A stretch of DNA of 64,000 nt, taken from the NCBI RefSeq assembly GCF_026810505.1, contig NZ_CP101750.1:2881254-2945253 (forward strand). The letters run 5' to 3'. Shown in pieces: positions 5,753-44,771 of this stretch. The notes beneath the pieces were generated by a model. The model worked only from the letters and a program-made list of their open reading frames with translations. It made no database searches and had not been told where the DNA came from. Both the position numbers and the translations under genes were made by a program. Origin of the DNA: Streptomyces sp. Je 1-369. Its GTDB lineage: Bacteria; Actinomycetota; Actinomycetes; Streptomycetales; Streptomycetaceae. How positions within the stretch are numbered: the first letter of the stretch is position 1; every line of letters begins with the position of its first letter.

Positions 5753-5771
5753 CGGCCGTACGGAGAGGAGG

Positions 5772-8951: not shown

Positions 8952-9001
8952 CCCGCGGCGGCTCCACACGGCCGCTTGCGCCCGCTCACTACGCTGACCG
9001 C

Positions 9002-11269: not shown

Positions 11270-11386
11270 CGGACACCCTCCGCTGTCCACCGGTACCGCC
11301 GCCCCCGCCCCCTCCCTGCCCGTGTCCCCTCGCGGGCGGGGAGGGGGACGAGGGAACCGGCCCGCCCGATCCGAGGAGGTCGCCGT

Positions 11387-12187: not shown

Positions 12188-12212
12188 GGTTCCCTCGCGC
12201 GCCGCACACCGC

Positions 12213-12995: not shown

Positions 12996-13016
12996 GATCG
13001 CGAGCCTATCCCGCGA

Positions 13017-13208: not shown

Positions 13209-13279
13209 GACCTGCTTTCTCGAACTCGGGGGGGGGAGAGAGATGAAGGGCGCGCCCAGAACGTGCAGCACTCGTGCTC

Positions 13280-14818: not shown

Positions 14819-14960
14819 GGCGGCACACTAGGCGCGGTGAGGGCCCGGAAGCCGCTGGTCAGCGGCGCCCCGCCGTTCTTTAAGGCAGCCTTGAGGATCG
14901 GCTCAACGGCGGTTAAGCCACGGGCCCTCACAGCCGTCCACGGCCCTCGCTGAGGGCAGC

Positions 14961-14998
14961 GTTCCTCCGGGGAAACAGGGCCGATCCTGCCGGGTAAC
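14961..14998 (+). promoter_or_regulatory. Candidate GlnR box upstream of the nitrite reductase operon
   Basis: GTTCC, six bases, GAAAC (14961-14976) approximates the GlnR consensus gTnAC-n6-GaAAC; a further GTAAC at 14994-14998 keeps the 11-base periodicity. It lies 24-61 bases before the flavoprotein gene. GlnR is the known activator of nitrate and nitrite assimilation genes in Streptomyces. The match is imperfect. Confidence 0.5.
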
Positions 14999-15021
14999 AC
15001 CGGCACCGCAGGCTTCTCGGC

Positions 15022-16386
<1,365 letters not shown>

Positions 16387-31005: not shown

Positions 31006-31251
31006 CGGTGTTTCCCTCCCGATTGAGCAAGCACCATTGAGTGGCGCGCAGATAAGAGATTTACGTACCGATACGCGGTTCCAATTAATGCCGGTCCGCA
31101 GTGCCTCCACAAGGAGAACAGGCGATGGTTATGCTCCGATCAAGGGATTTTGCGCACTGTGACAAAGCGCCCCAGACGTGGTCGTCTCCGATGTGCGCAG
31201 AGTGATGAATGCCGTCTGGATTTCCCCTGGGGCTTCTTCGACCGGAATGGC

Positions 31252-32612: not shown

Positions 32613-33848
32613 TCAGACCACCGGCTCCGGCAGCGTCATGAGGTGGGCGCGGTGGCGGGCTGCCGCGGCCGCTGCCGAGGGGCCGCCCAGCGCGGCTACG
32701 CCGATGAGGCGGGCGCCCTGGTAGTAGGCGTAGAGGAGGTCCCCTTCGGGTGCGGCGGGGTCGCCTTGGAGGAGTTCGCAGCGGTCGGCCAGTGCGGGTT
32801 GGCCGAACGATTGGAGGCGGAGCGTGAACTGGTCGCTCCAGAAGGAGGGGAGCGGGGCGCAGGGCGCCGGGTCGCGGGGGGTGTCCGTGAGGGCCGCGAC
32901 CAGGGTGCGGGCCGCGTGGCGGGCCGTTTCGCCGGGGAGCGACCAGTGCTCCACGCGGCGTGGCACGGGACCGTAGCGCGGGTTGGGGAAGCGGGCGACG
33001 TCGCCCACCGCCACCGCGTGCGGGATGCCGCCTATGCGCAGGTGGGCGTCGCAGAGGATGCCGTCGGTGAGGTCGAGGCCGGGCGTTGCCGCCAGCCATT
33101 CCGTGTTGGGGAGGGAGCCGATCGCTTCGACGAGCAGGTCCGCCCGTAGTTCGGTGCCGTCGTTCAGGAGGCAGCCCTGTGGGGTCAGTTCCGTCGCCAG
33201 GCAGCCCATGCGGAAACGTACTCCCCGCGCCTCGTGGCGGTGGCGCAGCGCCCGCGCCAAGTGCGGGCCGAGCGCGAGCACCATCGGTTCCGTCTCCGGC
33301 GCGACGACGGTCACCGCGCACCCCGCCGAGCGCGCGGTGGCCGCCACCTCGCAGCCGATGAAACCCGATCCGATCACTAGCACCCGGGCGCCCGCCGCCA
33401 GTCCGGCGGCCAGGGCCGCCGAGTCCTCCAGCGTGCGGACGACGTGCCGGGGCGGGCCCCCGGGCATCGGGAGTCTGCGTGGCCGCACCCCCGTCGCGGC
33501 CACCAGACCCTCGTACATGTGGACCGATCCGTCGGTCAGTGTGAGCGTGCGCGTCGTGAGGTCCGCGGCCGTGACGGCTGAACCGAGCCGCCACTCGACG
33601 TCCTCGACGCTGGGGCGCCTGCGCAGTTCCGTGCCGGCCGCGGGCGCGTGGCCCGCGAGTACGGCCTTGGAGAGCGGCGGGCGGTTGTACGGGAGATGGG
33701 GCTCGTCACCGAAGAGGGTGATCGGGCCGTGCCAGCCCGCGGCGCGGAGCTGTTCGGCCGCGCGCAGTCCGCCGAGCGACGCGCCCACGACCGCGATGCC
33801 GTGCGTCTCGTCGCCGCGTGGCCTCTGCACGGTGCCCGTTCCCTCCAT
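32613..33848 (-). CDS. Ferredoxin reductase (FAD/NAD, P450 redox partner type)
   Basis: A 411-residue flavoprotein reductase of the rubredoxin/putidaredoxin-reductase class. FAD site GIAVVGASLGGLRAAEQLR; then PYNRPPLSK, the GLVAATGVRPRRLP block, NAD site VLVIGSGFIGCEVAATAR and AVGDVARFPN. It passes electrons from NAD(P)H to a small ferredoxin. The ferredoxin gene precedes it in the same operon with a gap of three bases, and a P450 belongs to the same island, so it is very probably the reductase of that P450 chain. Confidence 0.9.
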   Translation of the reverse strand: MEGTGTVQRPRGDETHGIAVVGASLGGLRAAEQLRAAGWHGPITLFGDEPHLPYNRPPLSKAVLAGHAPAAGTELRRRPSVEDVEWRLGSAVTAADLTTRTLTLTDGSVHMYEGLVAATGVRPRRLPMPGGPPRHVVRTLEDSAALAAGLAAGARVLVIGSGFIGCEVAATARSAGCAVTVVAPETEPMVLALGPHLARALRHRHEARGVRFRMGCLATELTPQGCLLNDGTELRADLLVEAIGSLPNTEWLAATPGLDLTDGILCDAHLRIGGIPHAVAVGDVARFPNPRYGPVPRRVEHWSLPGETARHAARTLVAALTDTPRDPAPCAPLPSFWSDQFTLRLQSFGQPALADRCELLQGDPAAPEGDLLYAYYQGARLIGVAALGGPSAAAAAARHRAHLMTLPEPVV

Positions 33849-33851
33849 GTC

Positions 33852-34040
33852 TCAGCCCTCGACCCGGATGGCCTGCAACGGGCATACGTCGGCGGCGTCC
33901 TCGGCGTCGGCGCGCAGCGCCGCGTCGGGCGCGTCCACGTAAGCGAGGCGGCCCTCGTCGTCGAGCCGGAAGATGTCCGGCGCGGCGAAGACGCACTGCC
34001 CGTGGTCCTGGCAGACGTCCAGGTCGACTATCACCCTCAT
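33852..34040 (-). CDS. [3Fe-4S]-type ferredoxin for a P450
   Basis: A 62-residue ferredoxin with Cys at residues 10, 16 and 53. The first motif is CQDHGQC, in which the second Cys of a [4Fe-4S] site is replaced by His, and the last is VCPLQAI. This is the usual pattern of actinobacterial P450 ferredoxins that carry a 3Fe or labile 4Fe cluster. It lies three bases upstream of the ferredoxin reductase gene and about 50 bases downstream of the FAH-family gene, all leftward, so redox partners and ring-cleavage enzymes appear cotranscribed. Confidence 0.92.
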   Translation of the reverse strand: MRVIVDLDVCQDHGQCVFAAPDIFRLDDEGRLAYVDAPDAALRADAEDAADVCPLQAIRVEG

Positions 34041-34089
34041 TTAGCTGATCAACTCCTTTGATGGGTTGCCCTTTTGGGTGTGGGTTCGC

Positions 34090-34947
34090 TCAGCGGCGCG
34101 GCGGTCTGACGCCTCGGAACTCCCAGTCGCCGCCCAGCGCCGTGGAGAGGACCTCCTCGGACTCCGTGGGCTGGGCCCCGACATCGGGACGGATGGCCGT
34201 CGGGCCGGTGACGATGTGGTTGGTGAGGCGTCCCAGGCCCTCCGCCTCGACCTCGACGACGTCGCCGGGGCTGACCGGGCGGGAGCCCGCGGGTGTTCCG
34301 GAGAGCAGGACGTCGCCCGGCTCCAGGGTGATCGTGCGGGCGATGTCGGCGACGAGGTAGTGCATGTCCCACTGCATCTCGTCGGTCGAACCGTCCTGCG
34401 CGAGCTCGCCGTTGACGTACGTGCGGAGGTGTTTTCCGTGGAAGTCCCAGCCGGTGACCAGGCCCGGGCCGAGTGGGCAGAGCGTGTCGGAGCCCTTGAC
34501 GCGGAGCATCGAACCGGCGTCGGTGTCGCGGAAGTCGTGCAGGCCGTAGTCGTTGGCGACGGTGAAGCCCGCGATGTACGCGGCGGCTTCGTCCGGCGCC
34601 ACGTTGCGGCAGGTGCGGCCGATGACGATGCCGATCTCGCCCTCGTAGTTGAGGTACTTGCAGCCTTCGGGGCGTACGACGGCGCCGCCGTGGCTGTTGA
34701 GGGCGGAGACCGGCTTGTGGAAGTAGGTGGGTGCGGGTGGCAGCGTGGCTCCGAATTCCTCGACTCTGCTGCGGTGGTTGAGGTGGACCGCGATGACCTT
34801 GGACGGGCGTACGGGCGGGAGGTGGTGGGCCTCGGACGTCTTGACGCGGCGGCCGTCCGCGGCGATCAGTTCGTCGCCCTCGCGCACGACCTGGACGGCG
34901 GACCCGTCGAGCAGGATGCGGCGGTATTCCGTCGCGGTCGCCCTCAT
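34090..34947 (-). CDS. Fumarylacetoacetate hydrolase family protein (HpaG-like decarboxylase/isomerase)
   Basis: A 285-residue FAH-superfamily protein. The metal ligands are in LNYEGEIGIVIGR (two Glu) and the downstream Asp of NDYGLHDFRDTDAG; further blocks are KGSDTLCPLGPG, DMHYLVADIARTITLEPGD and LLSGTPAGSRPV. In the homoprotocatechuate pathway this family decarboxylates and isomerises the ring-cleavage product after dehydrogenation (HpaG). HpaG usually has two FAH domains or two proteins; here there is only one. It overlaps the dioxygenase stop by ATGA and is therefore part of the same operon. Confidence 0.85.
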   Translation of the reverse strand: MRATATEYRRILLDGSAVQVVREGDELIAADGRRVKTSEAHHLPPVRPSKVIAVHLNHRSRVEEFGATLPPAPTYFHKPVSALNSHGGAVVRPEGCKYLNYEGEIGIVIGRTCRNVAPDEAAAYIAGFTVANDYGLHDFRDTDAGSMLRVKGSDTLCPLGPGLVTGWDFHGKHLRTYVNGELAQDGSTDEMQWDMHYLVADIARTITLEPGDVLLSGTPAGSRPVSPGDVVEVEAEGLGRLTNHIVTGPTAIRPDVGAQPTESEEVLSTALGGDWEFRGVRPPRR

Positions 34948-35858
34948 GCCGTCGCCTCCGCTTCGGGGGTCGAGCCGGTCCAGCCGGACGCCGGGCGGTC
35001 GAACCACAGGTGCATCTGTCCCGTGCCGATGGAGTTCTCGTACGCGCTGTAGGCCCGCCCGGGCGCGGTGCAGCGCTCCTCGCCGAGGGCGCCGATCATC
35101 ATCAGGTAGTGCCCGAACCGCGCTTCCGGCTTGTGGGTGAGGAACTCCGGCATCGTGCGCAGGACTTGGGCGTGGTCGCCGCGTTCGAGCCATTCGATCC
35201 GTGCGTGGTCGGCCGCGCGTGCCTCGGGCGTACGGATGTGGGCGGGGTCGCTGGACTCGTGGGCGCGGAGTTCGCGCAGCGGCCAGAACGTGTGCGAGAG
35301 GGCGCCGGACGCGATGAGCAGGACCCTGCGTCCGGGCAGCGCGCCGATGCCGTCGGCGAGCGCCCGGCCGAGCCGCAGGTGGTCCTCGGCGTCACCGGTC
35401 TGGCAGACCCCGATCGAGACCCACTTCTTCGCGGGGAGGCCGTGGCCCAGGTACGTCCACAGGTTGATGGTGGCGTAGTACACGGGCAGGAAGGGGTCGT
35501 CGATCGGGGTGATCCAGGTGCCGTGCTTCTCCGCGAAACGGGCGACGGAGGCGGCGAGTTCGGGGTCGCCGGGGTAGTCGTACGGCATGCGGCACATGCC
35601 GCGCGGCAGCTCTTCGGAGGTGAAGAGGCCTGCCCGGCGGGGCTGCGCGGAGATCACGAACTCGACGGTGGTCGCCCAGTGCGAGTCGAGGACGACGACG
35701 GTGTCGTAGTCGAGCGTCTCGAAGACGTCGGCGCGCAGCTTGCGCAGGCCGGGGACGAGGCTGATCTCGCGGCCCTCGTTGAGCTCTTTGCGGGTGGACT
35801 CGGGCAGCACGATGGTGGGGACGTGGGCGAGGAGCCCGGCTCCGACGATCTCACCCAT
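34944..35858 (-). CDS. Homoprotocatechuate 2,3-dioxygenase-like class III extradiol enzyme (HpaD)
   Basis: A 304-residue LigB-type (class III) extradiol dioxygenase. Likely iron ligands are His12 (GLLAHVPT) and His60 (VVLDSHWAT), with a Glu later in the chain. Other family blocks are RMPYDYPGDPELA, ITPIDDPFLPVYYATINLW and LLIASGALSHTFWPLRE. It should open 3,4-dihydroxyphenylacetate or a close analogue next to the hydroxyls. It overlaps the dehydrogenase gene by eight bases upstream and the FAH gene by four bases downstream, giving a tight hpaE-D-G order. Confidence 0.88.
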   Translation of the reverse strand: MGEIVGAGLLAHVPTIVLPESTRKELNEGREISLVPGLRKLRADVFETLDYDTVVVLDSHWATTVEFVISAQPRRAGLFTSEELPRGMCRMPYDYPGDPELAASVARFAEKHGTWITPIDDPFLPVYYATINLWTYLGHGLPAKKWVSIGVCQTGDAEDHLRLGRALADGIGALPGRRVLLIASGALSHTFWPLRELRAHESSDPAHIRTPEARAADHARIEWLERGDHAQVLRTMPEFLTHKPEARFGHYLMMIGALGEERCTAPGRAYSAYENSIGTGQMHLWFDRPASGWTGSTPEAEATA

Positions 35859-37389
35859 GGTCGGCCCAGCCCTTCGGCGCGGTCACGGTGTTCTTGAGGT
35901 CGCAGTAGAAGTCGAAGGACCAGTCGCCGCCCTCGCGCCCGATGCCGGAGCGGCGTGCACCGCCGAAGGGTGCGGAGAGGTCGCGTACGTAGAAACAGTT
36001 GACCCAGACCGTGCCCGCGACGAGCCGAGCGCCGATCCGCGCCGCGCGTTCGCGGTCCCCCGCGACGAGGGTGGCGGCGAGCCCGAAGCGGGTGCCGTTG
36101 GCGAGGCGCACCGCCTCGTTCTCGTCGCCGTCGGGGAAGGTCTGGAGGGTCAGGACGGGTCCGAAGACCTCCTCCTGGACGATCTCGGAGTCCTGGTCGA
36201 CGTCGGTGAGGAGGGTGGGGAGGTAGTAGTTTCCGCCCGGTGCGTCGGTCGGCCCGGGGCCGCGGGCGCCGCCGATGACGGCTGTGGCGCCCGCGGCCAG
36301 TGCGCGGCGCACGAATCCGTCGACGCGCTCCACGTGCCGGGGGTGGATGCTGGGCCCGATGTCGGTGGCCTCGTCGCGCGGGTCGCCCTGGGTCAGCTTG
36401 GCCGCGCGGTCGAGGAAGCGGCCGAGGAAGGCGTCGCGCACGGATTCCTCTACGAGGATGCGGGTGGCGGCGAGGCAGATCTGGCCCGCGTTGTCGTACT
36501 GCTCCACGGCGAGGTCCGCGGCCAGGTCCAGGTCGGCGTCGGCGAGGACGAGCAGCGGTGACTTGCCGCCGAGCTCGAAGCCGCACGGGACGAGGTGCGC
36601 GGCGGCGGCCGCGGCGATGCGGCGAGCGGTGGGCACGGAGCCGGTGAAGCTGATGCGGCGCACGTCGGGGTGGGCGGTGAGGGCCGCGCCGGCCTCGTCC
36701 CCGTATCCCTGCACGACGTTGAAGACCCCGGGCGGCAGCCCCGCCTCGTGCGTGATGTCCGCGAGGAGGGAGGCGGTGAGCGGGGTCCACTCGGAGGGCT
36801 TGAGCACGACGGTGGAGCCCGCGGCGAGCGCGGGGGCGATCTTCCAGCTGGACAGCATCAGCGGCGCGTTCCACGGCGTGATGAGGACGGCGGGGCCCGC
36901 CGGGTCCCAGCTGACGTGGTTGGTGTGGCCGCGGGTGTCGAAGTCGTCGTGGGAGAGGGCGAGGAGGCGGTCGGCGAAGTAGCGGAAGTTGTGGGCGACG
37001 CGGGGCAGTACGCCTCGGCGGTGCGAGCGGAGGAGGGCGCCGTTGTCGGCGGTCTCCACGGCGGCGAGCTCTTCGGCGCGGGCGTCGACGCCGTCGGCGA
37101 CGGCGTGCAGCAGCGCGGCGCGCTCGGCGGGGGGCGTCGCGGCCCAGCCGGTCCGGCCGGACCCGCCGGTGAAGGCGGCGTCGGCGGCGGCCACGGCGGC
37201 GCGGGCCTCGGCGGCGGTGCCGCGGGCGATCCCGGCGAGCGGGGTGCCGTCGATGGGCGAGTGGTCGGTGAAGGCGGCGGGCGAGGCGACTCGGGTGCCG
37301 TCGATCCAGTGGCGGGTGTCGACGGGCACGCCGGCGACGGTCGCGGTGTGCGGCGGGTGCCCCGTGGGTGCGGGGGTGGGAGGAGCCAT
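35851..37389 (-). CDS. 5-Carboxymethyl-2-hydroxymuconate semialdehyde dehydrogenase-like (HpaE)
   Basis: A 512-residue aldehyde dehydrogenase. Catalytic Glu lies in CGFELGGKSPLLVLA and catalytic Cys in QYDNAGQICLAATRIL; NAD site around FTGSVPTARRIAAAAA. The C terminus shows the typical PFGGARRSGIGREGGDWSFD. In the homoprotocatechuate route it oxidises the semialdehyde made by HpaD. The ATG at 37389 is chosen because GGAGG lies directly before it; 16 bases upstream of the start is the operator-like palindrome. This is the first gene of the leftward operon. Confidence 0.9.
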   Translation of the reverse strand: MAPPTPAPTGHPPHTATVAGVPVDTRHWIDGTRVASPAAFTDHSPIDGTPLAGIARGTAAEARAAVAAADAAFTGGSGRTGWAATPPAERAALLHAVADGVDARAEELAAVETADNGALLRSHRRGVLPRVAHNFRYFADRLLALSHDDFDTRGHTNHVSWDPAGPAVLITPWNAPLMLSSWKIAPALAAGSTVVLKPSEWTPLTASLLADITHEAGLPPGVFNVVQGYGDEAGAALTAHPDVRRISFTGSVPTARRIAAAAAAHLVPCGFELGGKSPLLVLADADLDLAADLAVEQYDNAGQICLAATRILVEESVRDAFLGRFLDRAAKLTQGDPRDEATDIGPSIHPRHVERVDGFVRRALAAGATAVIGGARGPGPTDAPGGNYYLPTLLTDVDQDSEIVQEEVFGPVLTLQTFPDGDENEAVRLANGTRFGLAATLVAGDRERAARIGARLVAGTVWVNCFYVRDLSAPFGGARRSGIGREGGDWSFDFYCDLKNTVTAPKGWADHG

Positions 37390-37404
37390 CACTGCCTCCA
37401 ATTC

Positions 37405-37418
37405 GTTTGAACCCAAAC
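37405..37418. promoter_or_regulatory. Regulon palindrome, site 1 (before hpaE-like gene)
   Basis: GTTTG-AACC-CAAAC, a perfect 5+5 inverted repeat located 16 bases upstream of the leftward dehydrogenase start. It matches sites 2 and 3. It is close enough to the start to block transcription. Confidence 0.78.
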
Positions 37419-37479
37419 AACATTAGGGAGGGGTTGGGGTGGGGTCAACCCCTCGTAGCGGGTTCGGTGTTGAGTTATT

Positions 37480-37493
37480 GTTTGAATCCAAAC
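37480..37493. promoter_or_regulatory. Regulon palindrome, site 2 (before puuD-like gene)
   Basis: GTTTG-AATC-CAAAC, a perfect 5+5 inverted repeat 43 bases upstream of the rightward hydrolase start, 75 bases from site 1 (centre to centre). Two sites in a divergent spacer suggest joint control of both directions. Confidence 0.78.
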
Positions 37494-37535
37494 GAGTTTG
37501 TACCCGCACGACAGGTCCGCTTCCGGGAGCCAGCC

Positions 37536-38324
37536 ATGCCGATGCCCCGGCCCGCGCACGCTCGCCCCCTCATCGCCCTCCCCCAGCGGTACGCCGCGAC
37601 GACCTCCGCCCTGCGCTACGCCGCCGTCGTCACCGCGCGCGCCCTCGCCGACGCGGTGGTCCGCGCGGGCGGCGAACCGTTCATGATGCATCCCGGGCCA
37701 CCGGACGAGGCGGCCGACCGGCTCTCACGCTGCGCTGGGCTGCTGCTCCCCGGCGGCGGGGACGTCGCGCCCTGGCGGTACGCGGCCGAGGCCGGTGCGC
37801 AGGTCGAGGCCGATGCCGAGGTCGAGGTGCACGGCGCCGTGTACGACGTCGACGACGCGCAGGACGAGTTCGACCTCGCGCTCGCCCGCTGCGCACTGTC
37901 GCGCGGGCTCCCGACCCTGGCGGTCTGCCGGGGCATGCAGGTGGTCAACGTCGAGCTCGGCGGCACGCTGCGCCAGGACATGGGCGGCCCGGCGGCGGAG
38001 CACCGGCACAAGGTGCATGCGGTGCGGGTGGCGGCGGGGTCGGTGGTGGGGCGGGCGCTCGGTGCCGCGCAGACGGACGTGTCCTGTTACCACCACCAGT
38101 GCGTGGAGCGGCCCGGGCGAGGGCTCGTCCCCTCGGCATGGGCGGACGACGGGACGGTCGAGGCGCTCGAACTGCCGGAGGCGCGGGGGTGGTTCGCGGC
38201 TGTCCAGTGGCACCCGGAGGACACGGCGGCCGTGGACGGGGGACAGCAGGGGTTGTTCGGGGGGTTGGTCCAGGCTGCGGAGGCGTGGGCGGGGCGGGGG
38301 GCGGGGGTGGGGCTGTTGGGTTAG
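37536..38324 (+). CDS. Gamma-glutamyl-gamma-aminobutyrate hydrolase family protein (PuuD-like)
   Basis: A 262-residue class I glutamine amidotransferase-like hydrolase. The nucleophile is Cys131 in AVCRGMQVVNVELGG, with the His/Glu pair in AVQWHPEDT (H226, E228). GLLLPGGGDVAPWRY and SCYHHQCVERPG are further family marks. PuuD-type enzymes release the gamma-glutamyl group after oxidation of a gamma-glutamylated amine. Its regulon partner is the glutamine-synthetase-like ligase at 42014, which would add that group. It converges on the MarR gene with a 4-base overlap. Confidence 0.88.
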   Translation: MPMPRPAHARPLIALPQRYAATTSALRYAAVVTARALADAVVRAGGEPFMMHPGPPDEAADRLSRCAGLLLPGGGDVAPWRYAAEAGAQVEADAEVEVHGAVYDVDDAQDEFDLALARCALSRGLPTLAVCRGMQVVNVELGGTLRQDMGGPAAEHRHKVHAVRVAAGSVVGRALGAAQTDVSCYHHQCVERPGRGLVPSAWADDGTVEALELPEARGWFAAVQWHPEDTAAVDGGQQGLFGGLVQAAEAWAGRGAGVGLLG

Positions 38325-38899
38325 CTGACCGGGCGAGGCTTGCGGCCGCTGCGGCGGGGGGTGGGGGGTGCGCCGTTCAGGAGGTTCTGCCTGCGGTCGT
38401 CGCCCTTCTCCTCCGTCCGTACGACGATCTTGCGGAGCAGGTCCGCGAGCGTTTCGCACTCCGCGTCCGTCAACCCCTCCGTCACGAACGCCTCTTCCGC
38501 GTTGAAGGCGGGGAAGACCTCTCCCATCATGCGTTCCCCCTCGTCCGTGAGGCGGAGCAGGACGAGCCTGCCGTCCTCCGGGTGCCCCCGGCGCTCGAGC
38601 AGGCCCCGGCCCATGAGCGTACGGGCGACACCCGTCAGCGTGCCCTTGGAGATGCCCGCCTCCTCGGCGACGTACCGCGTCTCCATCTCGCCCCAGATCC
38701 AGACCACATAGAGCACGACGAACGACGTCCACGTCAGTTCGGCGCCGCGCAGGACGGAGTTCTCGAAGTGCTGGCGGACGGCCGCGGCCGCCCGGTAGAT
38801 GTTCGACACGGCGGCCATCTGCTCGTACGCCATGGGTGTGCCGCCGAGTTTGGCCCTGACCGCCTTCTCGGTCTCGTGGATGGTGCGATCGCCCGTCAC
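38321..38899 (-). CDS. MarR-family regulator of the catabolic island
   Basis: A 192-residue MarR-type protein. The winged helix is YVAEEAGISKGTLTGVARTLMGRGLLER followed by RRGHPEDGRLVLLRLTDEG (given in parts: VAEEAGISKGTLTG, LERRGHPEDGR). The GTG at 38899 has GAGGGG about ten bases before it. The gene sits centrally in the island, between the hydrolase and the permease, and a degenerate copy of the shared palindrome lies in its own upstream region, so it is the best candidate repressor; HpaR of the E. coli homoprotocatechuate pathway is also a MarR protein. The inducer would be a pathway compound. Confidence 0.88.
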   Translation of the reverse strand: MTGDRTIHETEKAVRAKLGGTPMAYEQMAAVSNIYRAAAAVRQHFENSVLRGAELTWTSFVVLYVVWIWGEMETRYVAEEAGISKGTLTGVARTLMGRGLLERRGHPEDGRLVLLRLTDEGERMMGEVFPAFNAEEAFVTEGLTDAECETLADLLRKIVVRTEEKGDDRRQNLLNGAPPTPRRSGRKPRPVS

Positions 38900-38961
38900 G
38901 TCCGTGTCCCCCTCTTGCCGCGGTGCATGCGCCTCCGTACCATCGGCGCCACTCGAATTTC

Positions 38962-38975
38962 GTACGGGCTCAAAC
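38962..38975. promoter_or_regulatory. Degenerate regulon palindrome between MarR and permease genes
   Basis: GTACG-GGCT-CAAAC keeps one full half-site and three of five bases in the other compared with sites 1-3. It lies 63 bases upstream of the MarR start and 48 bases before the permease start, so it could serve both. Confidence 0.45.
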
Positions 38976-39022
38976 GATAACGCGTCCCGAGCGGATGCGC
39001 CCACCTCTCAACGGAGTTCGGC

Positions 39023-40516
39023 ATGGCCCTCGACTCCCCCGCCACACCCACACCCCCCACTCCCCCCACCATGCCCGCTTCCCCCACCGTCCCCGAACGC
39101 CGCATCGGCGTCGCGGGCATCGTCTTCGTCGTGATCGCCGCGTCCGCGCCGCTGACCGTGGCCGCGGGCGGCGTCCCGCAGTCCCTCGGCATCACGGGCA
39201 TCCTCGGGATACCCCTCCTTTACCTCCTGACAGCCGTCGTACTCGCGCTCTTCAGCGCCGGATACGCGGCGATGAGCCGCCACATCACGGGTGCCGGGGC
39301 GTTCTACGCGTACACCGCCCGCGGTCTCGGCCGCATCCCGGGCGTCGGCGCGGCCTTCGTCGCGCTGCTCTCGTACAACGCCATGCAGATCGGCATCGCG
39401 GGCCTCTTCGGCGCCACCACCGCGGAATTCATCGACGCGCGGACCGGGGTGGAGATCCCCTGGTGGGTCCTCGTGCTCGCCTGCACGGCGGTCGTCGGAG
39501 CGCTCGGCTACCGCCGCGTCGACGTGGGCGTACGGGTCCTCGCCGTGCTGCTCGTCCTGGAGTTCGGCACGGTGCTCGTCTTCGACATCGGCGCGTTCGC
39601 CCACGCCCCCGAGGGCGTCTCGGCCGCGCCGCTCACCTGGGGCGCCGCCACGGACGGCTCACTCGGCGTCGCGCTGTGCTGCGTGTTCGCGGCGTACATG
39701 GGCTTCGAGTCGGCCGCGCTGTACAGCGAGGAGTGCCGGGATCCGCGCCGCACCGTGGCGCGCGCCACGTACATCGCCGTCGGGCTCATCGGCGTCTTCT
39801 ACGCCGCCACGGCCTGGGCGATGGTCAGCGGCGCGGGGACGGGGCGGGCTACGCGGGTCGCCGCGGAGCAGGGGCCGCAGATGATGTTCTCGCTCAGCGA
39901 CTCCAGTCTCGGCACGGTCTTCTCCGACCTCGCCCAGTTCTTCCTGATCACCAGCCTGCTCGCGGCGCTGCTCTCCTTCCACAACGCCGTCGCGCGGTAC
40001 GTGCGTTCGCTCGGCCGGGAAGGTGTCCTGCCGCGCGGCCTCGGCGTCCTCCACCGGCGGCACTCCTCGCCGCACCGTGGCTCGCTCCTGCAGACCGCGG
40101 TCACCGCCACCGTCATCGGGGTCTTCGCCCTGGCCGGGCGCGACCCCGTCGCCGACGTCTTCACCTGGCTGACCAACCTCGGCGCGCTCGGTGTGATCCT
40201 GCTCCTGTTCGCCACGTCGGCGTCCGTCGTCGCGTACTTCGCGCGCCGGCCCGAGCTGGGCGAGCCCCTCTGGCACCGGCTGATCGCACCCGTCCTCTCG
40301 GGCGCCGCACTCGCCGTCATCTTCTGGCTCGCCCTCACCAACTTCAGCGTCCAGCTGGGGGTTTCGTCGGACAACCCACTGCGGTGGATCCTGCCGGGGC
40401 TCATTCTGGTCGCGGCGGGGGTGGGGGTCGGGTGGGGAGCTTGGCTGCGGGTCGAGCGGCCGGAGATCTATGCGGGGGTCGGGGAGGGGGAGGAAAGGCG
40501 CGTCGTGGGTGGCTAG
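39023..40516 (+). CDS. APC-family amino acid/amine permease
   Basis: A 497-residue membrane protein with about 12 helices of the amino acid-polyamine-organocation family. The N-terminal signature GIVFVVIAASAPLTVAAGGVPQSLG appears as VFVVIAASAPLTVAAGGVP, then SRHITGAGAFYAYTARGLG and GFESAALYSEECRDPRRTVARAT (in parts: GFESAALYSEE, RDPRRTVARAT). In gamma-glutamylation pathways the permease PuuP occupies this role. The substrate is probably an amine or amino acid. It is divergent from the MarR gene and converges on the ADC-like gene with a four-base overlap. Confidence 0.9.
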   Translation: MALDSPATPTPPTPPTMPASPTVPERRIGVAGIVFVVIAASAPLTVAAGGVPQSLGITGILGIPLLYLLTAVVLALFSAGYAAMSRHITGAGAFYAYTARGLGRIPGVGAAFVALLSYNAMQIGIAGLFGATTAEFIDARTGVEIPWWVLVLACTAVVGALGYRRVDVGVRVLAVLLVLEFGTVLVFDIGAFAHAPEGVSAAPLTWGAATDGSLGVALCCVFAAYMGFESAALYSEECRDPRRTVARATYIAVGLIGVFYAATAWAMVSGAGTGRATRVAAEQGPQMMFSLSDSSLGTVFSDLAQFFLITSLLAALLSFHNAVARYVRSLGREGVLPRGLGVLHRRHSSPHRGSLLQTAVTATVIGVFALAGRDPVADVFTWLTNLGALGVILLLFATSASVVAYFARRPELGEPLWHRLIAPVLSGAALAVIFWLALTNFSVQLGVSSDNPLRWILPGLILVAAGVGVGWGAWLRVERPEIYAGVGEGEERRVVGG

Positions 40517-41304
40517 AGGTTTCGCTCCAGCAAGGTGCCGCCGTTCCATGTGACGCCCACCTGGCGGTAGTACGCGCCGATGGGCTCGTCGACCGTGAGC
40601 TCGGCCAGCTCCTCCGTGGGCGCGTCGAAGAGGGCCAGGTCCGCGTCGCCCGACCACGCCTGACCGCCCTCGAACGCGGCGGCGCCCGACGCGATCAGCT
40701 CGTCGAGGGCGAGCCCCTTGCCGTCGATGGCGGGAAGCTGGCGGTGGTGGGCCATGGGATGCGCGTTCACGAACCCGTTGGTCTCGGACGGCTCCCGCAG
40801 TGTCACCACGGCCTGGGCGAGGCGGCGGTCGGCGGCGGCGAGCGTGGCACCGAAGGCGGCGCCGGGCTCGATGCGGGGGGCGGGGCCGTAGGGGTGGGGC
40901 CGGGTGAGGTGGATGGAGCCGAGCTTCTTCGGGTAGCCCTGGTGATTGCCGCGGGCGACGGCGAAGTCCTTGTCGACCCAGATGTACACGCAGCGGGAGT
41001 AGGTGCGGGCGCGGTAGGCACAGCGGACCACCGCGAAGCACTCCTTGTACTGGGCGCGGACGGGGTCGAGCAGCTCCGCCCTGTCATCCCCGCACGACTG
41101 CCAGTCGGCCCAGATGAGGGCGACGGCGCCGGGGTCCTCGGGGGCCGGTTCCAGCGGCTCGGGGAGGAGTTCGCGGACGCGGGCGGGGTTGGTGCGGTAC
41201 TCGATGGTGAGGAGGTCGCCGGAGTAGCGCCAAGGGGGTGCGGGGATCAGGGAGGAGCGGCCGGTGGCGCTCTTGGGCGGATAGAACCCACGGACTCCGA
41301 TCAT
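40513..41304 (-). CDS. Acetoacetate decarboxylase-like protein
   Basis: A 263-residue member of the acetoacetate decarboxylase superfamily. The block GNHQGYPKKLGSIHL contains the Lys pair that in true decarboxylases forms and tunes the Schiff base; LLTIEYRTNPARVRELLP near the N terminus and KECFAVVRCAYRARTYSRCVY are further marks. Some relatives are not decarboxylases but aldolase-dehydratases. Its presence in a ring-cleavage island is unusual: it might act on a keto acid or substitute for a missing hydratase or aldolase. It is leftward, upstream of it is a long repeat-rich spacer. Confidence 0.8.
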   Translation of the reverse strand: MIGVRGFYPPKSATGRSSLIPAPPWRYSGDLLTIEYRTNPARVRELLPEPLEPAPEDPGAVALIWADWQSCGDDRAELLDPVRAQYKECFAVVRCAYRARTYSRCVYIWVDKDFAVARGNHQGYPKKLGSIHLTRPHPYGPAPRIEPGAAFGATLAAADRRLAQAVVTLREPSETNGFVNAHPMAHHRQLPAIDGKGLALDELIASGAAAFEGGQAWSGDADLALFDAPTEELAELTVDEPIGAYYRQVGVTWNGGTLLERNL

Positions 41305-41446
41305 GATCGGCGCACCCCCATTCGGTGTCGTTTGAGGCCGTACGATACGCCGGGGGGCGGGGGGCTGTCACGGTTTCTGGCGGGGGCGCCTCGGGCGGGG
41401 TCTGCGCCTCGGCCCGCCGGGGGGCGGGGGGAGCGGGGGGCTGGGC

Positions 41447-41678
41447 GGCGCGGGTATGTACGTACTCGCTGTCCCTGCGGCCGCGCGCACATACCCCTGT
41501 GTCCCCTCGCGTCTCGCGGGTCGGTGCGGGTCGGTGGGGGTGGGTGCGCCTTCGGTTCGTCTGTGGGGGCGGGGCCGCGCGGGTATGTACGTACTCGCTA
41601 TCCCTGCGCCGCGCCCGACATTCCCGGCCGTGGGGGTGTGCTCGGTGCTCCGTGCGCACATACCCCCACGTCCCCTCC
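41447..41678 (+). repeat. Duplicated module with inverted GGGTATGT/ACATACCC boxes
   Basis: Copy A (41447-41511) and copy B (41575-41615 plus 41651-41678) share a left part reading GCGGGTATGTACGTACTCGC and a right part reading GCGCACATACCC followed by a C-rich tail. In each copy the left GGGTATGT (41452, 41581) pairs with the right ACATACCC (41489, 41658). The spacing between boxes is 29 bases in A and 69 in B. Confidence 0.75.
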
Positions 41679-41721
41679 GGCGCGCTCGCGACTGCGGCCC
41701 GGTGGGACCGCCGCCCCTGCC

Positions 41722-41905
41722 CCTACTCCCGCTGGACGTCGCGGGGCAAACGGGCGGGCGGGTGGGGAACATCCGCCGCGAAGCGGCGGGCTTGGCGCCC
41801 CTACCCGCACACGGCGTCGCGGGGTGAACGGGCGGGCGGGCGGGAGTGATCCGCCGCGAAGCGGCGGGCTCGGCGCTCCTACCCGCGCAGGACGTCGCAG
41901 GGGGT
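41722..41905 (+). repeat. 78-base tandem repeat with internal hairpins
   Basis: Two full units (41722-41799, 41800-41877) and a partial third (from 41878) start with CCTAC. Each full unit contains the perfect hairpin CCGCCGC-GAA-GCGGCGG (41773-41789 and 41851-41867) and a run of CGGG. Units differ at several positions, so the duplication is not very recent. Confidence 0.8.
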
Positions 41906-41961
41906 CACGGCAACAAACCCACCCGCACAGACACTTGCGGCCCCGCCCCGCCCTCCCTACC

Positions 41962-41975
41962 GTTTGGAGTCAAAC
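41962..41975. promoter_or_regulatory. Regulon palindrome, site 3 (before GS-like/P450 operon)
   Basis: GTTTG-GAGT-CAAAC, a perfect 5+5 inverted repeat 39 bases upstream of the GTG of the glutamine-synthetase-like gene. Together with sites 1 and 2 it links the ligase/P450 operon to the ring-cleavage and hydrolase genes. Confidence 0.78.
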
Positions 41976-42013
41976 AAATCGCGCACCGCGCCCCCGGAAA
42001 GGCTGGGACACGG

Positions 42014-43432
42014 GTGAGTGAAGCGAGCGCACCATCACAGGGCAAGGCGAAGACCGTTCAGGCCACGGCCACGGTCACCGTGGAGAACCTCCGAGCCACC
42101 GGCACCGACGTCGTCCGCGTCGTCTACCCCGACCTCCTGGGCGCCGACCGAGGCAGAGACGTCCTCCTGGGCCAGCTGCCGAGCGCCTGCACACACGGCC
42201 TGACCTTCTGCAGGGCCGTCTACCACACCACCCCGCGAGGCGACGTCGTCCCCGTCGCGGGCGGACTCGACGCGGGACTCCCCGACATCTGCGTACAGCC
42301 GGACCTCGCCACCCTGAAGCCCCTGCCGTGGGAGCCCGGCGTCGCCTGGTGCCTGGGCGACAGCCTGGACCCGCTCACCGAAGGACCCGTACCGGAGTCC
42401 CCACGCGCCCTGCTGAAGCGCGTACTCGCGCACGCCGACGACTACACCTCAGGACAGGAAGGCACCGTCGGACACCCCGGCCTCGCCGCGATCGTCGGCC
42501 CCGAGCTGGAGTACTTCCTCTGCGACTCCTCCCCCACCGCCCCCTCCGGCTGGACCCCGTACGGCGCCGCCACCGGCAACGTCTACAGCGCCGGACGACG
42601 CGGCGACCCGGACGGCCATCTGCTGCGCACGCTCCGCCAGTTGGAGGCACTCGGCATCGGCGTCATCGCCGGTAACCACGAGTTCGACGGCGGGCAGTTC
42701 GAGATCAACCTCGACCACTCCGGCGCCCTGGACGCCGCCGACCGCGCCTTCTTCTTCAAGGCCGCCGTCAAGGAGACCGCCCGCCACGAGGGGCGCCTCG
42801 CGACCTTCATGGCCAAGCCGTTCAACGGGCTCGGCGGGTCGGGGTTCCACGTGCATCTGTCGCTCGTCGACAGCGACGGGCGGAACGTCTTCGACGATCC
42901 GCGCGCCGAGTACGGGCTCTCCGCCACCGCCCGGCACGCCGTCGGCGGCGTCCTGCGGCACGCCCCCGCGCTGGCCGCCCTGCTCAACCCGACGGTCAAC
43001 TCGTACAAACGCTTCGGGCCCGACACCCTCGCCCCCTGGCTGATCGACTGGGGACTGGACAACCGCAGCGCCATGGTCCGCATCCCGCCCGAGCGCGGCA
43101 CCGGAACCCGCCTGGAGCTGCGCCTCGGCGACGCCTCCGCCAACCCCTACCTCCTCGTCGCCGGCACCGTCGCCGCCGTCCTGCTCGGCCTGCGCGACCG
43201 CCCCGAACCGCCCGCCCCGCTGGAGGGGTACGGCTACGACGAGTCCTCCGCACCCCGCCTCCCCGCCACGCTCCCCGAGGCCCTCGACGCCCTGGAGGCC
43301 GACGAGGCGCTCACCGGCCTCCTCGGCGCGGACTTCACCCGCGCGTTCCTGACGTACAAGCGCAACGAGGTCGAGCGGTACCAACAGGCCGTCACGGACT
43401 GGGAGTTCGAGGAGTACGCACTCCTCATCTGA
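42014..43432 (+). CDS. Glutamine-synthetase-like gamma-glutamyl-amine ligase
   Basis: A 472-residue class I GS-fold protein. It has GNHEFDGGQFEINLDHS, AKPFNGLGGSGFHVHLSL with the catalytic His, NSYKRFGPDTLAPWLIDWG and the ATP-site block RIPPERGTGTRLELRLGDASANPYL (given in parts). The adenylylation Tyr loop of true GlnA is absent. The N-terminal half is closer to PuuA/GlnA3/GlnA4-type ligases that attach glutamate to amines such as polyamines or ethanolamine, using ATP. The GTG at 42014 has GGAAAGG upstream. Next gene, 70 bases on, is a P450. The amine is unknown; an aromatic amine is inferred from the neighbours. Confidence 0.88.
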   Translation: MSEASAPSQGKAKTVQATATVTVENLRATGTDVVRVVYPDLLGADRGRDVLLGQLPSACTHGLTFCRAVYHTTPRGDVVPVAGGLDAGLPDICVQPDLATLKPLPWEPGVAWCLGDSLDPLTEGPVPESPRALLKRVLAHADDYTSGQEGTVGHPGLAAIVGPELEYFLCDSSPTAPSGWTPYGAATGNVYSAGRRGDPDGHLLRTLRQLEALGIGVIAGNHEFDGGQFEINLDHSGALDAADRAFFFKAAVKETARHEGRLATFMAKPFNGLGGSGFHVHLSLVDSDGRNVFDDPRAEYGLSATARHAVGGVLRHAPALAALLNPTVNSYKRFGPDTLAPWLIDWGLDNRSAMVRIPPERGTGTRLELRLGDASANPYLLVAGTVAAVLLGLRDRPEPPAPLEGYGYDESSAPRLPATLPEALDALEADEALTGLLGADFTRAFLTYKRNEVERYQQAVTDWEFEEYALLI

Positions 43433-43502
43433 CCGCCGGGCGCCGGGTCGACACCCCCGAGCCCCGAAAGCCCGAACCCGAGCCTCGAAAGGGAGCATCC
43501 CC

Positions 43503-44771
43503 ATGCGTACGGACACCCCGCCCCTCCCTCTCGCCGACGTCGACCTCGCCGACAACGACCGGTTCACCGACCGCGAGCTGCCCTGGCGCATGTTCGACGT
43601 GCTGCGCCGCGAGGACCCCGTCCACTGGCAGCCCGAGCCCCCGCCCAACTCCGGTTTCTGGGCGGTCACCCGGCACGCCGACATCGTGCGCGTCGACCGC
43701 GACCCCGAGACCTTCACCTCCGAGATGTTCACCAACCTGGAGGAGGTGGACGACGACTACATCGCTGTGCGCCGGTCGCTCCTCGAAACCGACGGGCTCC
43801 GGCACCGGGCGATGCGGCTCATCCTGCAGAAGCGGTTCACGCCGCGCGCCGTCGCCACGTACGAGACGTTCCTGCGGGGCCTGACCGCCCGTACGCTCGA
43901 CGCCGCCCTGCCCAAAGGCACGTTCGATTTCGTGCGTGAGGTGTCCGCGGACTTCCCCATCAACGTGCTCGCCCGCATGCTCGACGTCCCGGGAGGCGAC
44001 ACGCAGCAGCTCATCGACTGGGGCAACCGCATCATCGGCAACACCGACCCGGACTACGCCGACGTACTCCTGGAGAGCGAGGAGAGCGGGCAGTACCGCA
44101 ATCTTCCCTTCAGGTCCCCCGCTTCCCTCGAAGTCTTCGCGTACGGGCGGGAGTTGGCAGCCCGGCGGCGGGGCGGGGGCGGGAACGACCTCGTGACGGC
44201 GCTGGTGAACAGCTCACCCAAGGACGGCGTGCCGCTCTCCGCCACCGACTTCGACAACTACTTCCTGCTGCTCGTCGTCGCCGGCAACGAGACGACCCGG
44301 CACGCCATTTCGCACTCCATGCTCGCACTGATCGAGCACCCGGAGGAGCGGGAGCGGCTCGTCCGAGACCCCTCGCTCATACCGAACGCCGTTGAGGAGT
44401 GCCTGCGTTGGGCCTCGCCCGTCTACCACTTCCGGCGGACGGCGACGTGCGACGTCGAGCTCGGCGGGAAGCTGATCAGGGCGGGCGACAAGGTCGTCAT
44501 GTGGTTCGCCTCCGGCAACCGCGACGAGGACGCCTTCCCGGACCCGTACCGCTTCGACGTCACCCGCGAGAACAACGACCACGTCACCTTCGGCAAGGGC
44601 AGCCCCCACTTCTGCCTCGGCAACTCCCTGGCCCGCCTGGAGATGCGGATCATGTTCGAGGAGCTGCTGCCGCGACTCGCGGACATCCGCGTCGCGGGTG
44701 AGGTGCGGCGCGTACGCTCCAACTTCGTCAACGGGATCAAGGAGCTTCCCGTGACGGTGACACTCACTTAG
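43503..44771 (+). CDS. Cytochrome P450
   Basis: A 422-residue bacterial P450. The haem loop is FGKGSPHFCLGNSLARLE with the thiolate Cys at residue 371. The K-helix ExxR lies in EECLRWASP. The I-helix reads VAGNETTRHAIS, with Glu-Thr in place of Asp-Thr as in several actinobacterial P450s that act on hydrophobic or aromatic substrates. GAAAGGGAG lies seven bases before the ATG. It is the second gene of the GS-like operon; its likely electron chain (ferredoxin, reductase) is encoded in the leftward operon of the same regulon. It may hydroxylate, O-demethylate or N-dealkylate the pathway intermediate. Confidence 0.9.
   Translation: MRTDTPPLPLADVDLADNDRFTDRELPWRMFDVLRREDPVHWQPEPPPNSGFWAVTRHADIVRVDRDPETFTSEMFTNLEEVDDDYIAVRRSLLETDGLRHRAMRLILQKRFTPRAVATYETFLRGLTARTLDAALPKGTFDFVREVSADFPINVLARMLDVPGGDTQQLIDWGNRIIGNTDPDYADVLLESEESGQYRNLPFRSPASLEVFAYGRELAARRRGGGGNDLVTALVNSSPKDGVPLSATDFDNYFLLLVVAGNETTRHAISHSMLALIEHPEERERLVRDPSLIPNAVEECLRWASPVYHFRRTATCDVELGGKLIRAGDKVVMWFASGNRDEDAFPDPYRFDVTRENNDHVTFGKGSPHFCLGNSLARLEMRIMFEELLPRLADIRVAGEVRRVRSNFVNGIKELPVTVTLT

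What the first reader, a model, noticed from the sequence alone, without database searches (positions are those of the whole stretch)
32613..44771. One regulon combining P450 chemistry, gamma-glutamylation and meta-cleavage
Seen: HpaE-D-G-like genes, ferredoxin, ferredoxin reductase, P450, GS-like ligase, PuuD-like hydrolase, APC permease, an ADC-like protein and one MarR gene lie within 12 kb, with a shared palindrome at three promoters. Known: homoprotocatechuate cleavage uses HpaD/E/G; amine pathways use a GS-like ligase and a hydrolase (PuuA/PuuD, aniline AtdA1/A2). Inference: an aromatic amine (for example a tyramine, dopamine or methoxylated phenethylamine type) is taken up, gamma-glutamylated, oxidised by the P450 and cleaved. 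The HpaF, HpaH and HpaI steps, and the amine-oxidising step, are not encoded here, so the pathway must be non-standard or use genes elsewhere. I do not know of a described system with this combination.
Basis: partly seen in the sequence, partly recalled or inferred. Interest (0 to 1): 0.85.

Follow-up and report, generated by a model that had tools for sequence, protein, structure and literature searches.

The report
Glutamyl-shielded aromatic amine ring-cleavage module
A widely shared set of soil-bacterium genes looks like an undescribed route for eating tyramine- or dopamine-like compounds, in which the amine is capped with glutamate while the aromatic ring is broken open, so that no amine oxidase is needed.

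Summary
They form one inherited module: in 200 Streptomycetaceae genomes the dioxygenase (23) and GS-like gene (24) co-occur in 22, and relatives occur across Actinomycetia and on a Novosphingobium plasmid. Relatives (43 of 57 loci) carry a second, PuuC-like aldehyde dehydrogenase, lost here, and the ADC-like protein belongs to the MppR family, so it could stand in for HpaH plus HpaI, relatives of which were not found in the module loci. Best reading: a phenolic phenethylamine (tyramine, dopamine or methoxylated analogue) is gamma-glutamylated, made a catechol by the P450 system, ring-cleaved, and degraded to pyruvate plus 4-(gamma-glutamylamino)butanal, which PuuC/PuuD-type steps turn into GABA plus glutamate. 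No amine oxidase is needed; the cap would stop the amine cyclising onto the ring-cleavage aldehyde. Decarboxylase-like genes in ten related clusters, one tyrosine-decarboxylase-like, support this. Substrate and every reaction are inferred; nothing was assayed.

The parts
32613..33848 (-). ferredoxin reductase (FdR), P450 electron transfer
   Evidence: Pyr_redox_2 1e-51, Reductase_C; in 44 of 57 related loci
33852..34040 (-). ferredoxin, single cluster, C10-x2-H13-x2-C16 ... C53
   Evidence: Fer4_13; the four residues in 44 of 44 relatives
34090..34953 (-). FAH-family decarboxylase/isomerase (HpaG-like, single domain); start re-assigned
   Evidence: FAA_hydrolase 4e-56, HpaG-C-term 209.5 bits, cut-off 276.4; 55 of 57 loci
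34944..35858 (-). LigB-type extradiol dioxygenase (HpaD-like subfamily)
   Evidence: LigB 4e-22, HpaD_Fe 119.6 bits, cut-off 315.95; H12, H60, H189 and E245 invariant in 56 of 56, and in 76 of 76 module rows of a wider alignment
35851..37389 (-). ALDH1, ring-cleavage semialdehyde dehydrogenase (HpaE-like); ATG 37389 preferred to the TTG at 37416
   Evidence: Aldedh 2e-148, top model HpaE 506.6 bits, cut-off 638.35
37403..37420 (.). operator palindrome TCGTTTGAACCCAAACAA
37478..37495 (.). operator palindrome TTGTTTGAATCCAAACGA
37536..38324 (+). PuuD-like gamma-glutamyl-amide hydrolase (Peptidase_C26); C131, H226, E228
   Evidence: Peptidase_C26 2e-45; triad in 44 of 44. The PuuC-like ALDH2 that lies next to it in most relatives is absent here
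38321..38899 (-). MarR regulator, likely the repressor of the regulon
   Evidence: MarR 2e-11; 40 of 57 loci
38960..38977 (.). operator between MarR and APC
39023..40516 (+). APC-family amine/amino-acid permease
   Evidence: AA_permease_2 4e-32; 41 of 57 loci have an APC relative
40513..41304 (-). ADC/MppR-like protein; proposed hydratase-aldolase replacing HpaH+HpaI
   Evidence: ADC 3e-56; PDB 4jm3 MppR 1e-45, 4zbo/6eej 8e-44, lysines aligned; K126 and K127 in 50 of 50
41328..41345 (.). operator upstream of the ADC-like gene
41960..41977 (.). operator upstream of the GS-like gene
42014..43432 (+). GS-like gamma-glutamyl-amine synthetase (GoaS type)
   Evidence: Gln-synt_C 5e-96 (on the longer ORF); Glu-flap residue replaced by L339, L in 47 and I in 2 of 49 relatives
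43503..44771 (+). cytochrome P450, proposed ring hydroxylase or O-demethylase
   Evidence: p450 2e-23; haem Cys371 in 41 of 43 relatives, the other 2 not covering it

Best explanation
A MarR-controlled catabolic module for phenolic phenethylamines, in which the amine stays gamma-glutamylated through ring cleavage. Proposed order: APC uptake; GS-like ligase makes the gamma-glutamyl amide; P450+ferredoxin+FdR hydroxylates (or O-demethylates) the ring to give gamma-glutamyl-dopamine; LigB cleaves it 2,3 (extradiol); ALDH1 oxidises the semialdehyde; the FAH protein isomerises and decarboxylates; the ADC/MppR-like enzyme hydrates and retro-aldol-cleaves the 2-oxo-3-enoate to pyruvate plus 4-(gamma-glutamylamino)butanal; a PuuC-like ALDH (ALDH2, lost here and presumably replaced by another ALDH) gives gamma-glutamyl-GABA; the PuuD-like hydrolase frees GABA and glutamate. 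The cap stops the side-chain amine closing onto the ring-cleavage aldehyde. Shown: gene content, conservation, co-inheritance, shared operators, intact catalytic residues, lost ammonia-GS flap residue. Inferred: substrate, order, every reaction.
For: Co-inheritance: of 200 Streptomycetaceae genomes LigB in 23 and GS in 24, shared 22, p = 6e-26; the same 24 as GS carry the close P450. Operators recur in 51 of 57 loci. ALDH2, in 43 of 57 loci, has PuuC as top NCBIfam model in 3 of 3 tested (547-554 bits, next 473-476; cut-off 850) while the window ALDH1 has HpaE on top. PuuD-like triad intact in 44 of 44. ADC-like protein is in the MppR family with its lysine; ADC-like genes are induced about 80-fold in archaeal phenol meta-cleavage and proposed there as the aldolase (PMC7820114 passages). 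No HpaH/HpaI-like gene found in the module loci, against 7 of 7 and 6 of 7 canonical hpa loci that I picked, which have no GS, ADC, PuuD or P450 relative. Amino-acid-decarboxylase-like genes adjoin the module in 9 of 21 distant loci and on pSLUN1, there tyrosine-decarboxylase-like; at least three sequence-distinct kinds. VanA-type O-demethylase-like genes in 5 of 21. Extradiol products of 3,4-dihydroxyphenethylamines cyclise onto the amine (PMC12311729 passages).
Against: No enzyme here has been assayed, and no curated cut-off was reached. ALDH2 is missing in the window, its best own-genome relative being 49% identical, and no ALDH2 relative of 60% or more was seen in the 21 distant loci. No isomerase for the HpaF step is assigned; one CHMI-family protein lies about 0.25 Mb away. 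P450/Fdx/FdR are absent in L059, L075, L076, which have a phenylacetaldehyde-dehydrogenase-like ALDH3 and a SnoaL-like protein instead; L069 and L078 also show no P450, and L041, L049, L050, L053, L080 show the P450 without Fdx/FdR, in the stretch held. L132 has no GS in its 20 kb. The decarboxylases other than pSLUN1's have L-2,4-diaminobutyrate decarboxylase as top NCBIfam model in 4 of 4 tested, far below cut-off; in the PDB one has DOPA, desferrioxamine-type and another PLP decarboxylase nearly tied on top, the other a decarboxylase of unstated substrate. A PLP decarboxylase also sits in one canonical hpa locus (L151). A recurrent F420-type LLM oxidoreductase has no role in this scheme.
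Confidence: 0.57

Rival explanations
1. Ipu/HPA hybrid: the P450 oxidises the carbon next to the glutamylated nitrogen (N-dealkylation) or the amide is hydrolysed early; the arylacetaldehyde is oxidised to an arylacetate and homoprotocatechuate itself is ring-cleaved.
For: GS-like + P450 + ferredoxin + reductase + amidotransferase + permease is described for isopropylamine in Arthrobacter aurescens TC1, where the P450 works on the glutamylated amine (PMC6776027 passages). ALDH3, tested in one of the three clusters that have it, looks like phenylacetaldehyde dehydrogenase. One Cu amine oxidase gene exists elsewhere in the own genome.
Against: HpaI and HpaB models have no match in the own genome; module LigB differs from canonical HpaD at 23 listed near-fixed positions, though the L100 sequence shares several module states; a PuuC-like plus PuuD-like pair beside the cluster would have no evident role.
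Confidence: 0.16
2. The same shielded logic on a benzylamine (for example vanillylamine), ending in gamma-glutamyl-beta-alanine, or on a beta-hydroxylated phenethylamine (octopamine/noradrenaline type), ending in a hydroxy-GABA.
For: VanA-like O-demethylase genes in 5 of 21 distant loci; the enzymes could treat a shorter or hydroxylated chain the same way (inference).
Against: Amino-acid-decarboxylase-like genes beside the module fit phenethylamines better; top ALDH2 model is PuuC.
Confidence: 0.12
3. Aniline-type pathway: the glutamylated nitrogen is on the ring (AtdA1/NpaA1-like).
For: GoaS enzymes act on anilines and naphthylamines (PMC11335346 passages).
Against: The aniline system uses a Rieske dioxygenase (same passages); a PuuC/PuuD-like tail and amino-acid decarboxylases would have no evident purpose.
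Confidence: 0.05
4. Biosynthetic role: the dioxygenase makes a building block, as L-DOPA dioxygenases do in lincomycin-type pathways.
For: A 59%-identical LigB paralogue (L044) lies in a biosynthesis-like cluster with HpaB, flavin reductase and Asn synthase.
Against: The window module has a permease, ring-degradation enzymes and a hydrolase, and no assembly-line genes among those scanned; no GS or P450 relative in L044.
Confidence: 0.05

Closest known systems
Ipu pathway (isopropylamine; GS-like IpuC, P450, ferredoxin, reductase, amidotransferase, permease)
   Same: Permease, GS-like ligase, three-part P450 system and amidotransferase-like hydrolase in one cluster; oxidation of a glutamylated amine
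   Different: No ring cleavage and no PuuC-like or ADC-like enzyme in the passages read; sequences not compared because the TC1 plasmid was not found
4-hydroxyphenylacetate/homoprotocatechuate (Hpa) meta pathway
   Same: LigB-type dioxygenase, HpaE-like ALDH, FAH-family decarboxylase, MarR regulator
   Different: GS, ADC-like and PuuD-like genes present; no HpaH/HpaI relative found; dioxygenase about 28-37% identical to those of the seven canonical loci compared
Puu putrescine pathway (PuuA, PuuC, PuuD)
   Same: gamma-glutamylation at the start, PuuC-like ALDH and PuuD-like hydrolase at the end; the proposed last two intermediates are the same compounds (Puu chemistry recalled)
   Different: No PuuB-type amine oxidase among the cluster genes; the aldehyde would come from ring cleavage and retro-aldol, not amine oxidation (inference)
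AtdA/NpaA aniline and naphthylamine pathways (GoaS + GAT + Rieske dioxygenase)
   Same: Glutamylation before oxygenation, GAT-like hydrolase, later ring cleavage
   Different: P450 in place of Rieske dioxygenase; hydrolase proposed at the end; aliphatic amine proposed
L-DOPA 2,3-dioxygenase mini-pathway (lincomycin type)
   Same: Extradiol 2,3-cleavage of a catechol with an amine side chain
   Different: There the product semialdehyde cyclises onto the side-chain amine (PMC12311729 passages); here the cap would prevent it

Membership tests
Hpa (homoprotocatechuate) pathway | HpaD/HpaE/HpaG at curated family level | tested here: not met
   HpaD_Fe 119.6 of 315.95; HpaE 506.6 of 638.35; HpaG-C 209.5 of 276.4 bits
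Hpa (homoprotocatechuate) pathway | HpaH hydratase and HpaI aldolase | tested here: not met
   No HpcG/HpcH relative (one query each, E 1e-6, over 50% of the query) in the module loci searched; HpaI model 0 matches in own genome; canonical loci 7 of 7 and 6 of 7. HpaH was not searched genome-wide
Hpa (homoprotocatechuate) pathway | homoprotocatechuate as ring-cleavage substrate | not testable with these tools
   needs assay
Puu pathway | gamma-glutamyl-amine synthetase (PuuA) | tested here: inconclusive
   GGputSyn 247 of 650 bits; GS fold present, curated cut-off not met
Puu pathway | PuuC and PuuD | tested here: inconclusive
   ALDH2 of three relatives: PuuC top model, 547-554 of 850 bits; PuuD model top but 45.9 (window) and 72.3 (L029) of 266 bits; ALDH2 absent in window
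Puu pathway | PuuB amine oxidase | tested here: not met
   no FAD amine oxidase among the window cluster genes; not searched genome-wide
Ipu-type P450 amine pathway | GS-like + P450 + ferredoxin + FdR + hydrolase + permease in one cluster | tested here: met
   GS 49, P450 43, Fdx 45, FdR 44, PuuD 44, APC 41 of 57 loci
Ipu-type P450 amine pathway | P450 acts on the glutamylated amine | not testable with these tools
   needs assay
GoaS (glutamyl-organic-amine synthetases) | loss of the GS Glu-flap glutamate | tested here: met
   L339 (L 47, I 2 of 49) where a true GS (8ool) has Glu; criterion from PMC11335346 passages, which print Glu357; recalled as E327 of the Salmonella enzyme
GoaS (glutamyl-organic-amine synthetases) | loss of Asp50' and no ammonia ligation | tested here: inconclusive
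   the FDGSS region of 8ool is not matched in the alignment; activity needs assay
MppR/ADC-like aldolases | active-site lysine in the ADC fold | tested here: met
   PKKLG aligned with MppR PKQFG and 4zbo PKKLG; both lysines in 50 of 50; which lysine is catalytic is recalled, not tested. MppR model 172.3 of 380 bits, so not an MppR itself
MppR/ADC-like aldolases | hydratase/retro-aldolase on 2-oxo-3-enoates | not testable with these tools
   needs assay

The most novel reading that the evidence does not exclude
Actinobacteria and some Alphaproteobacteria have an undescribed modular pathway that turns tyrosine-derived and plant or animal phenethylamines into pyruvate, GABA and glutamate by carrying a gamma-glutamyl protecting group through aromatic ring cleavage, with a single ADC-family hydratase-aldolase in place of HpaH and HpaI and interchangeable entry enzymes (decarboxylase, P450, VanA-type demethylase, amidohydrolase).
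Probability: 0.48. Interest if true: 0.85.

Novelty: new variant of a known kind. Interest (0 to 1): 0.74.

Why it matters
If true, it is a catabolic logic that, as far as I know, none of the Hpa, Puu, Ipu or aniline routes has: the nitrogen is protected while the ring is opened and leaves as GABA, so neither an amine oxidase nor ammonia release is needed at the start. It gives a testable function to a dioxygenase now often annotated 'catechol 1,2-dioxygenase' or '3,4-dihydroxyphenylacetate 2,3-dioxygenase' (names), to an ADC-like protein family and to a GS-like clade. It would also bear on how actinobacteria recycle catecholamines and methoxylated phenethylamines.

Tried and rejected
Chance neighbourhood: rejected by co-inheritance and operators. 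Canonical Hpa pathway: rejected as membership. A separate hpa cluster around the one CHMI-family match: of its neighbours I scanned only one, an APC permease, so this was looked at only in part. Cu amine oxidase: one distant match, not linked to the module. LLM oxidoreductase as a substitute for ALDH2: dropped, since several loci have both. Comparison with the Ipu genes of strain TC1: record not found. Structure prediction and fold search were not used. Papers PMC127573 and PMC3743547 are not held. Literature searches for this combination, seen as listings only, showed no paper that I recognised as describing it; one search found 0 papers and one search listed 15 of 29. Preprints and most subscription journals are not covered, so absence from print is not claimed.

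Dropped rows and choices: L044 (59% paralogue) was left out of the residue counts but is one of the 57 loci; five loci duplicate another (L056, L061, L062, L063, L067) and are included in counts of 57 and in the residue counts, leaving 52 distinct; many loci are cut by contig ends or the flank. The three searches of 200 genomes used different E-value limits (1e-10, 1e-110, 1e-100). In the P450 co-occurrence I counted only matches of 73% identity or more (24 genomes), leaving out G019 and G020 and extra paralogues in G001 and G029. That the three searches drew the same genomes is judged from the listed handles only. The seven canonical hpa loci are ones I picked from 15 listed of 46 plasmid records.
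Full report
What is there. The window lies in an 8.82-Mb one-contig genome; the closest dioxygenase records (96% identity) are named Streptomyces venezuelae. Between 32613 and 44771, Pfam and NCBIfam scans show a ferredoxin reductase, a small single-cluster ferredoxin, an FAH-family protein, a LigB-type dioxygenase, an HpaE-like aldehyde dehydrogenase (ALDH1), a Peptidase_C26 (PuuD-like) hydrolase, a MarR regulator, an APC permease, an ADC/MppR-like protein, a GS-like protein and a P450. Of the hits shown none reaches its curated cut-off, so the names mean 'of this family', not 'is this enzyme'.

Operators. The palindrome close to TCGTTTGRNNYCAAACGA is at 37403, 37478, 38960, 41328 and 41960. 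Seven strand hits were found against 0.12 expected; the largest of 100 shuffles had two. The motif at 13 or more of 16 scored positions occurs in 51 of 57 related loci, 134 sites in all; one Markov-1 simulation per locus gave none. The six loci without a site are L044, L045 and L075-L078. Of 21 distant loci, 18 have no site.

One inherited module. In Streptomycetaceae, 23 of 200 genomes have the dioxygenase (E up to 1e-10), 24 of 200 the GS-like gene (1e-110), and 24 the P450 at 73% identity or more (26 at 1e-100). Dioxygenase and GS are shared by 22 (Fisher p = 6e-26); GS and close P450 are in the same 24 (p = 2e-31). The exceptions are informative: G142 has only a 59% dioxygenase paralogue in a biosynthesis-like cluster, G131 is a 1260-contig assembly, and G144 has only truncated GS and P450. 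In 57 fetched loci (52 distinct; many cut by contig ends or the 10-kb flank) the counts are LigB 57 (with the L044 paralogue), ALDH1 56, FAH 55, ADC 50, GS 49, Fdx 45, FdR 44, PuuD-like 44, ALDH2 43, P450 43, APC 41, MarR 40. Gene order and strand change between loci while content stays. The module is also on plasmids of Streptomyces canus and S. lunaelactis and in Embleya replicons and, with a 57% LigB, on a Novosphingobium plasmid. In a class-level draw 30 of 394 genomes, in 12 of 137 genera, had a dioxygenase match; of the 21 outside Streptomycetaceae, 18 have GS and 18 the P450 within the stretch held, one partial each.

The missing dehydrogenase. In 43 of 57 loci a second dehydrogenase (ALDH2) is present, as a rule beside the PuuD-like gene. 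Its best NCBIfam model is PuuC in 3 of 3 tested, 547-554 bits with the next model at 473-476, below the cut-off of 850. The window has lost it: its own genome's best relative is 49% identical and lies elsewhere. PuuC acts on gamma-glutamyl-gamma-aminobutyraldehyde and PuuD on gamma-glutamyl-GABA (Puu pathway, recalled; the PuuD model is so named).

Why these parts fit together. If the ring substrate is gamma-glutamyl-dopamine, 2,3-cleavage, aldehyde oxidation, isomerisation/decarboxylation and hydration/retro-aldol lead, atom by atom, to pyruvate plus 4-(gamma-glutamylamino)butanal, the PuuC substrate (my derivation from the known Hpa chemistry, recalled). The PuuC-like and PuuD-like genes then have a natural place, and no amine oxidase is needed. 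The ADC-like protein is related to MppR (4jm3, 1e-45) and to the 4zbo/6eej enzyme (8e-44), with the lysine aligned and conserved in 50 of 50 relatives. In Saccharolobus grown on phenol, two ADC-like genes are induced about 80-fold and were proposed as aldolases of a meta-cleavage route (PMC7820114, passages only). With one HpaH-like and one HpaI-like query no relative was found in the module loci, while seven canonical hpaD loci that I picked have the HpaH-like gene in 7 and the HpaI-like gene in 6, and none has a GS, ADC, PuuD or P450 relative. HpaI and HpaB models have no match in the own genome; a GabT over its curated cut-off is there. The proposed reason for the cap is chemical: the L-DOPA dioxygenase product spontaneously cyclises onto the side-chain amine, and 3,4-dihydroxyphenethylamines give cyclic pyrrolines (PMC12311729, passages only).

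Active sites. LigB H12, H60, H189 and E245 are invariant in 56 of 56 relatives. The subfamily differs from the seven canonical sequences at 23 listed near-fixed positions, of which the E245 row is probably an alignment shift (the two glutamates align); one of the seven (L100) shares several module states. FAH E184 and E186 are invariant in 55 of 55, and the PuuD-like C/H/E triad in 44 of 44. The GS-like protein has Leu (47) or Ile (2 of 49) where a true GS has the Glu-flap glutamate, a loss described for glutamyl-organic-amine synthetases (PMC11335346, passages only).

Which amine. On pSLUN1 the gene after FAH, annotated as a class-V aminotransferase, is a Pyridoxal_deC protein. Its best NCBIfam models are two tyrosine decarboxylases, below cut-off, and its best structures are bacterial decarboxylases that I recall as tyrosine decarboxylases. 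No P450 relative was found in that stretch. In 9 of 21 distant loci a relative of this decarboxylase adjoins the module. Eight of the nine are one group (52-96% identical); L127 and pSLUN1 carry two further kinds (38% or less to the rest), which suggests separate recruitments. The amino acid is not fixed by sequence: one member of the larger group has DOPA, desferrioxamine-type and another PLP decarboxylase nearly tied on top, L127 a decarboxylase of unstated substrate, and in NCBIfam 4 of 4 tested have diaminobutyrate decarboxylase on top, far below cut-off. Other possible entry genes are VanA-type oxygenases (5 of 21 distant loci; the domain checked in one), an Amidohydro_3 gene (11 of 57) and, on the S. 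canus plasmid, a second P450/ferredoxin plus GcvT-like, FolD and PurU genes. A second GATase-family gene lies beside GS in many distant loci (relatives in 14 of 21). A GabT-like gene is at the edge of one locus, L132. Taken together these point to phenolic, partly methoxylated, phenethylamines, with tyramine or dopamine the simplest guess.

Against this reading. Nothing is assayed. ALDH2 is not universal: it is absent here, present only as short fragments in L080 and L047 (the latter at a contig end) and not seen in distant loci. The HpaF step has no assigned enzyme. Three clusters (L059, L075, L076) have, in place of the P450 set and permease, an ALDH3 and a SnoaL-like protein; other loci show no P450, or a P450 without Fdx/FdR, in the stretch held. 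L132 has no GS in its 20 kb. An F420-type LLM oxidoreductase recurs without a role. A PLP decarboxylase also lies in one canonical hpa locus (L151), so decarboxylases are not exclusive to the module.

Comparison with known systems. The upper half works like the Ipu route (glutamylation, then P450; PMC6776027, passages only), the middle like the Hpa meta route, the end like Puu. It is not a member of Hpa (no HpaH/HpaI relative found, scores below cut-off), and membership of Puu is not supported (no PuuB among the cluster genes, scores below cut-off). I rate it a new variant built from known kinds of enzymes, with a mechanism that would be new if shown.

Noticed in passing
L044 9520-10584 (with 4048-15674): A 59%-identical LigB paralogue sits in a biosynthesis-like Streptomycetaceae cluster with HpaB, a flavin reductase, Asn synthase, a PALP/rhodanese protein, a class-V aminotransferase, TauD and a methyltransferase: perhaps a natural product made by catechol ring cleavage.
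   Followed up: partly
L059, L075, L076: Clusters without P450, ferredoxin, reductase and permease carry instead an ALDH3 (phenylacetaldehyde-dehydrogenase-like in the one tested) and a SnoaL/lumazine-binding-like 136-aa protein next to GS.
   Followed up: partly
L099 17311-18234 and 26 other loci: A TIGR03619-family F420-type LLM oxidoreductase recurs beside the module; its role is unknown.
   Followed up: no
L098 10959-14266 (Sagittula stellata plasmid): GS-like, glutamine-amidotransferase-like and P450 genes in a row, the P450 44% identical to the window's: an Ipu-like or related amine pathway.
   Followed up: no
L148 (G144): A decayed copy of the module: only a truncated GS and a P450 found in two pieces remain in the stretch held.
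   Followed up: no
window 41440-41900: The long ADC-GS intergenic region holds two pairs of repeated segments (around 41450/41580 and 41765/41845), seen by eye.
   Followed up: no
window 30115-32517: DUF4394 protein next to a PucR-type regulator gene; this pair also adjoins the module in Streptomyces atriruber (L045).
   Followed up: no
L124-L126, L135, L136, L099, L036: A formyl-transferase-domain protein (PurU-like) recurs beside the module, suggesting C1 recycling from demethylation.
   Followed up: partly
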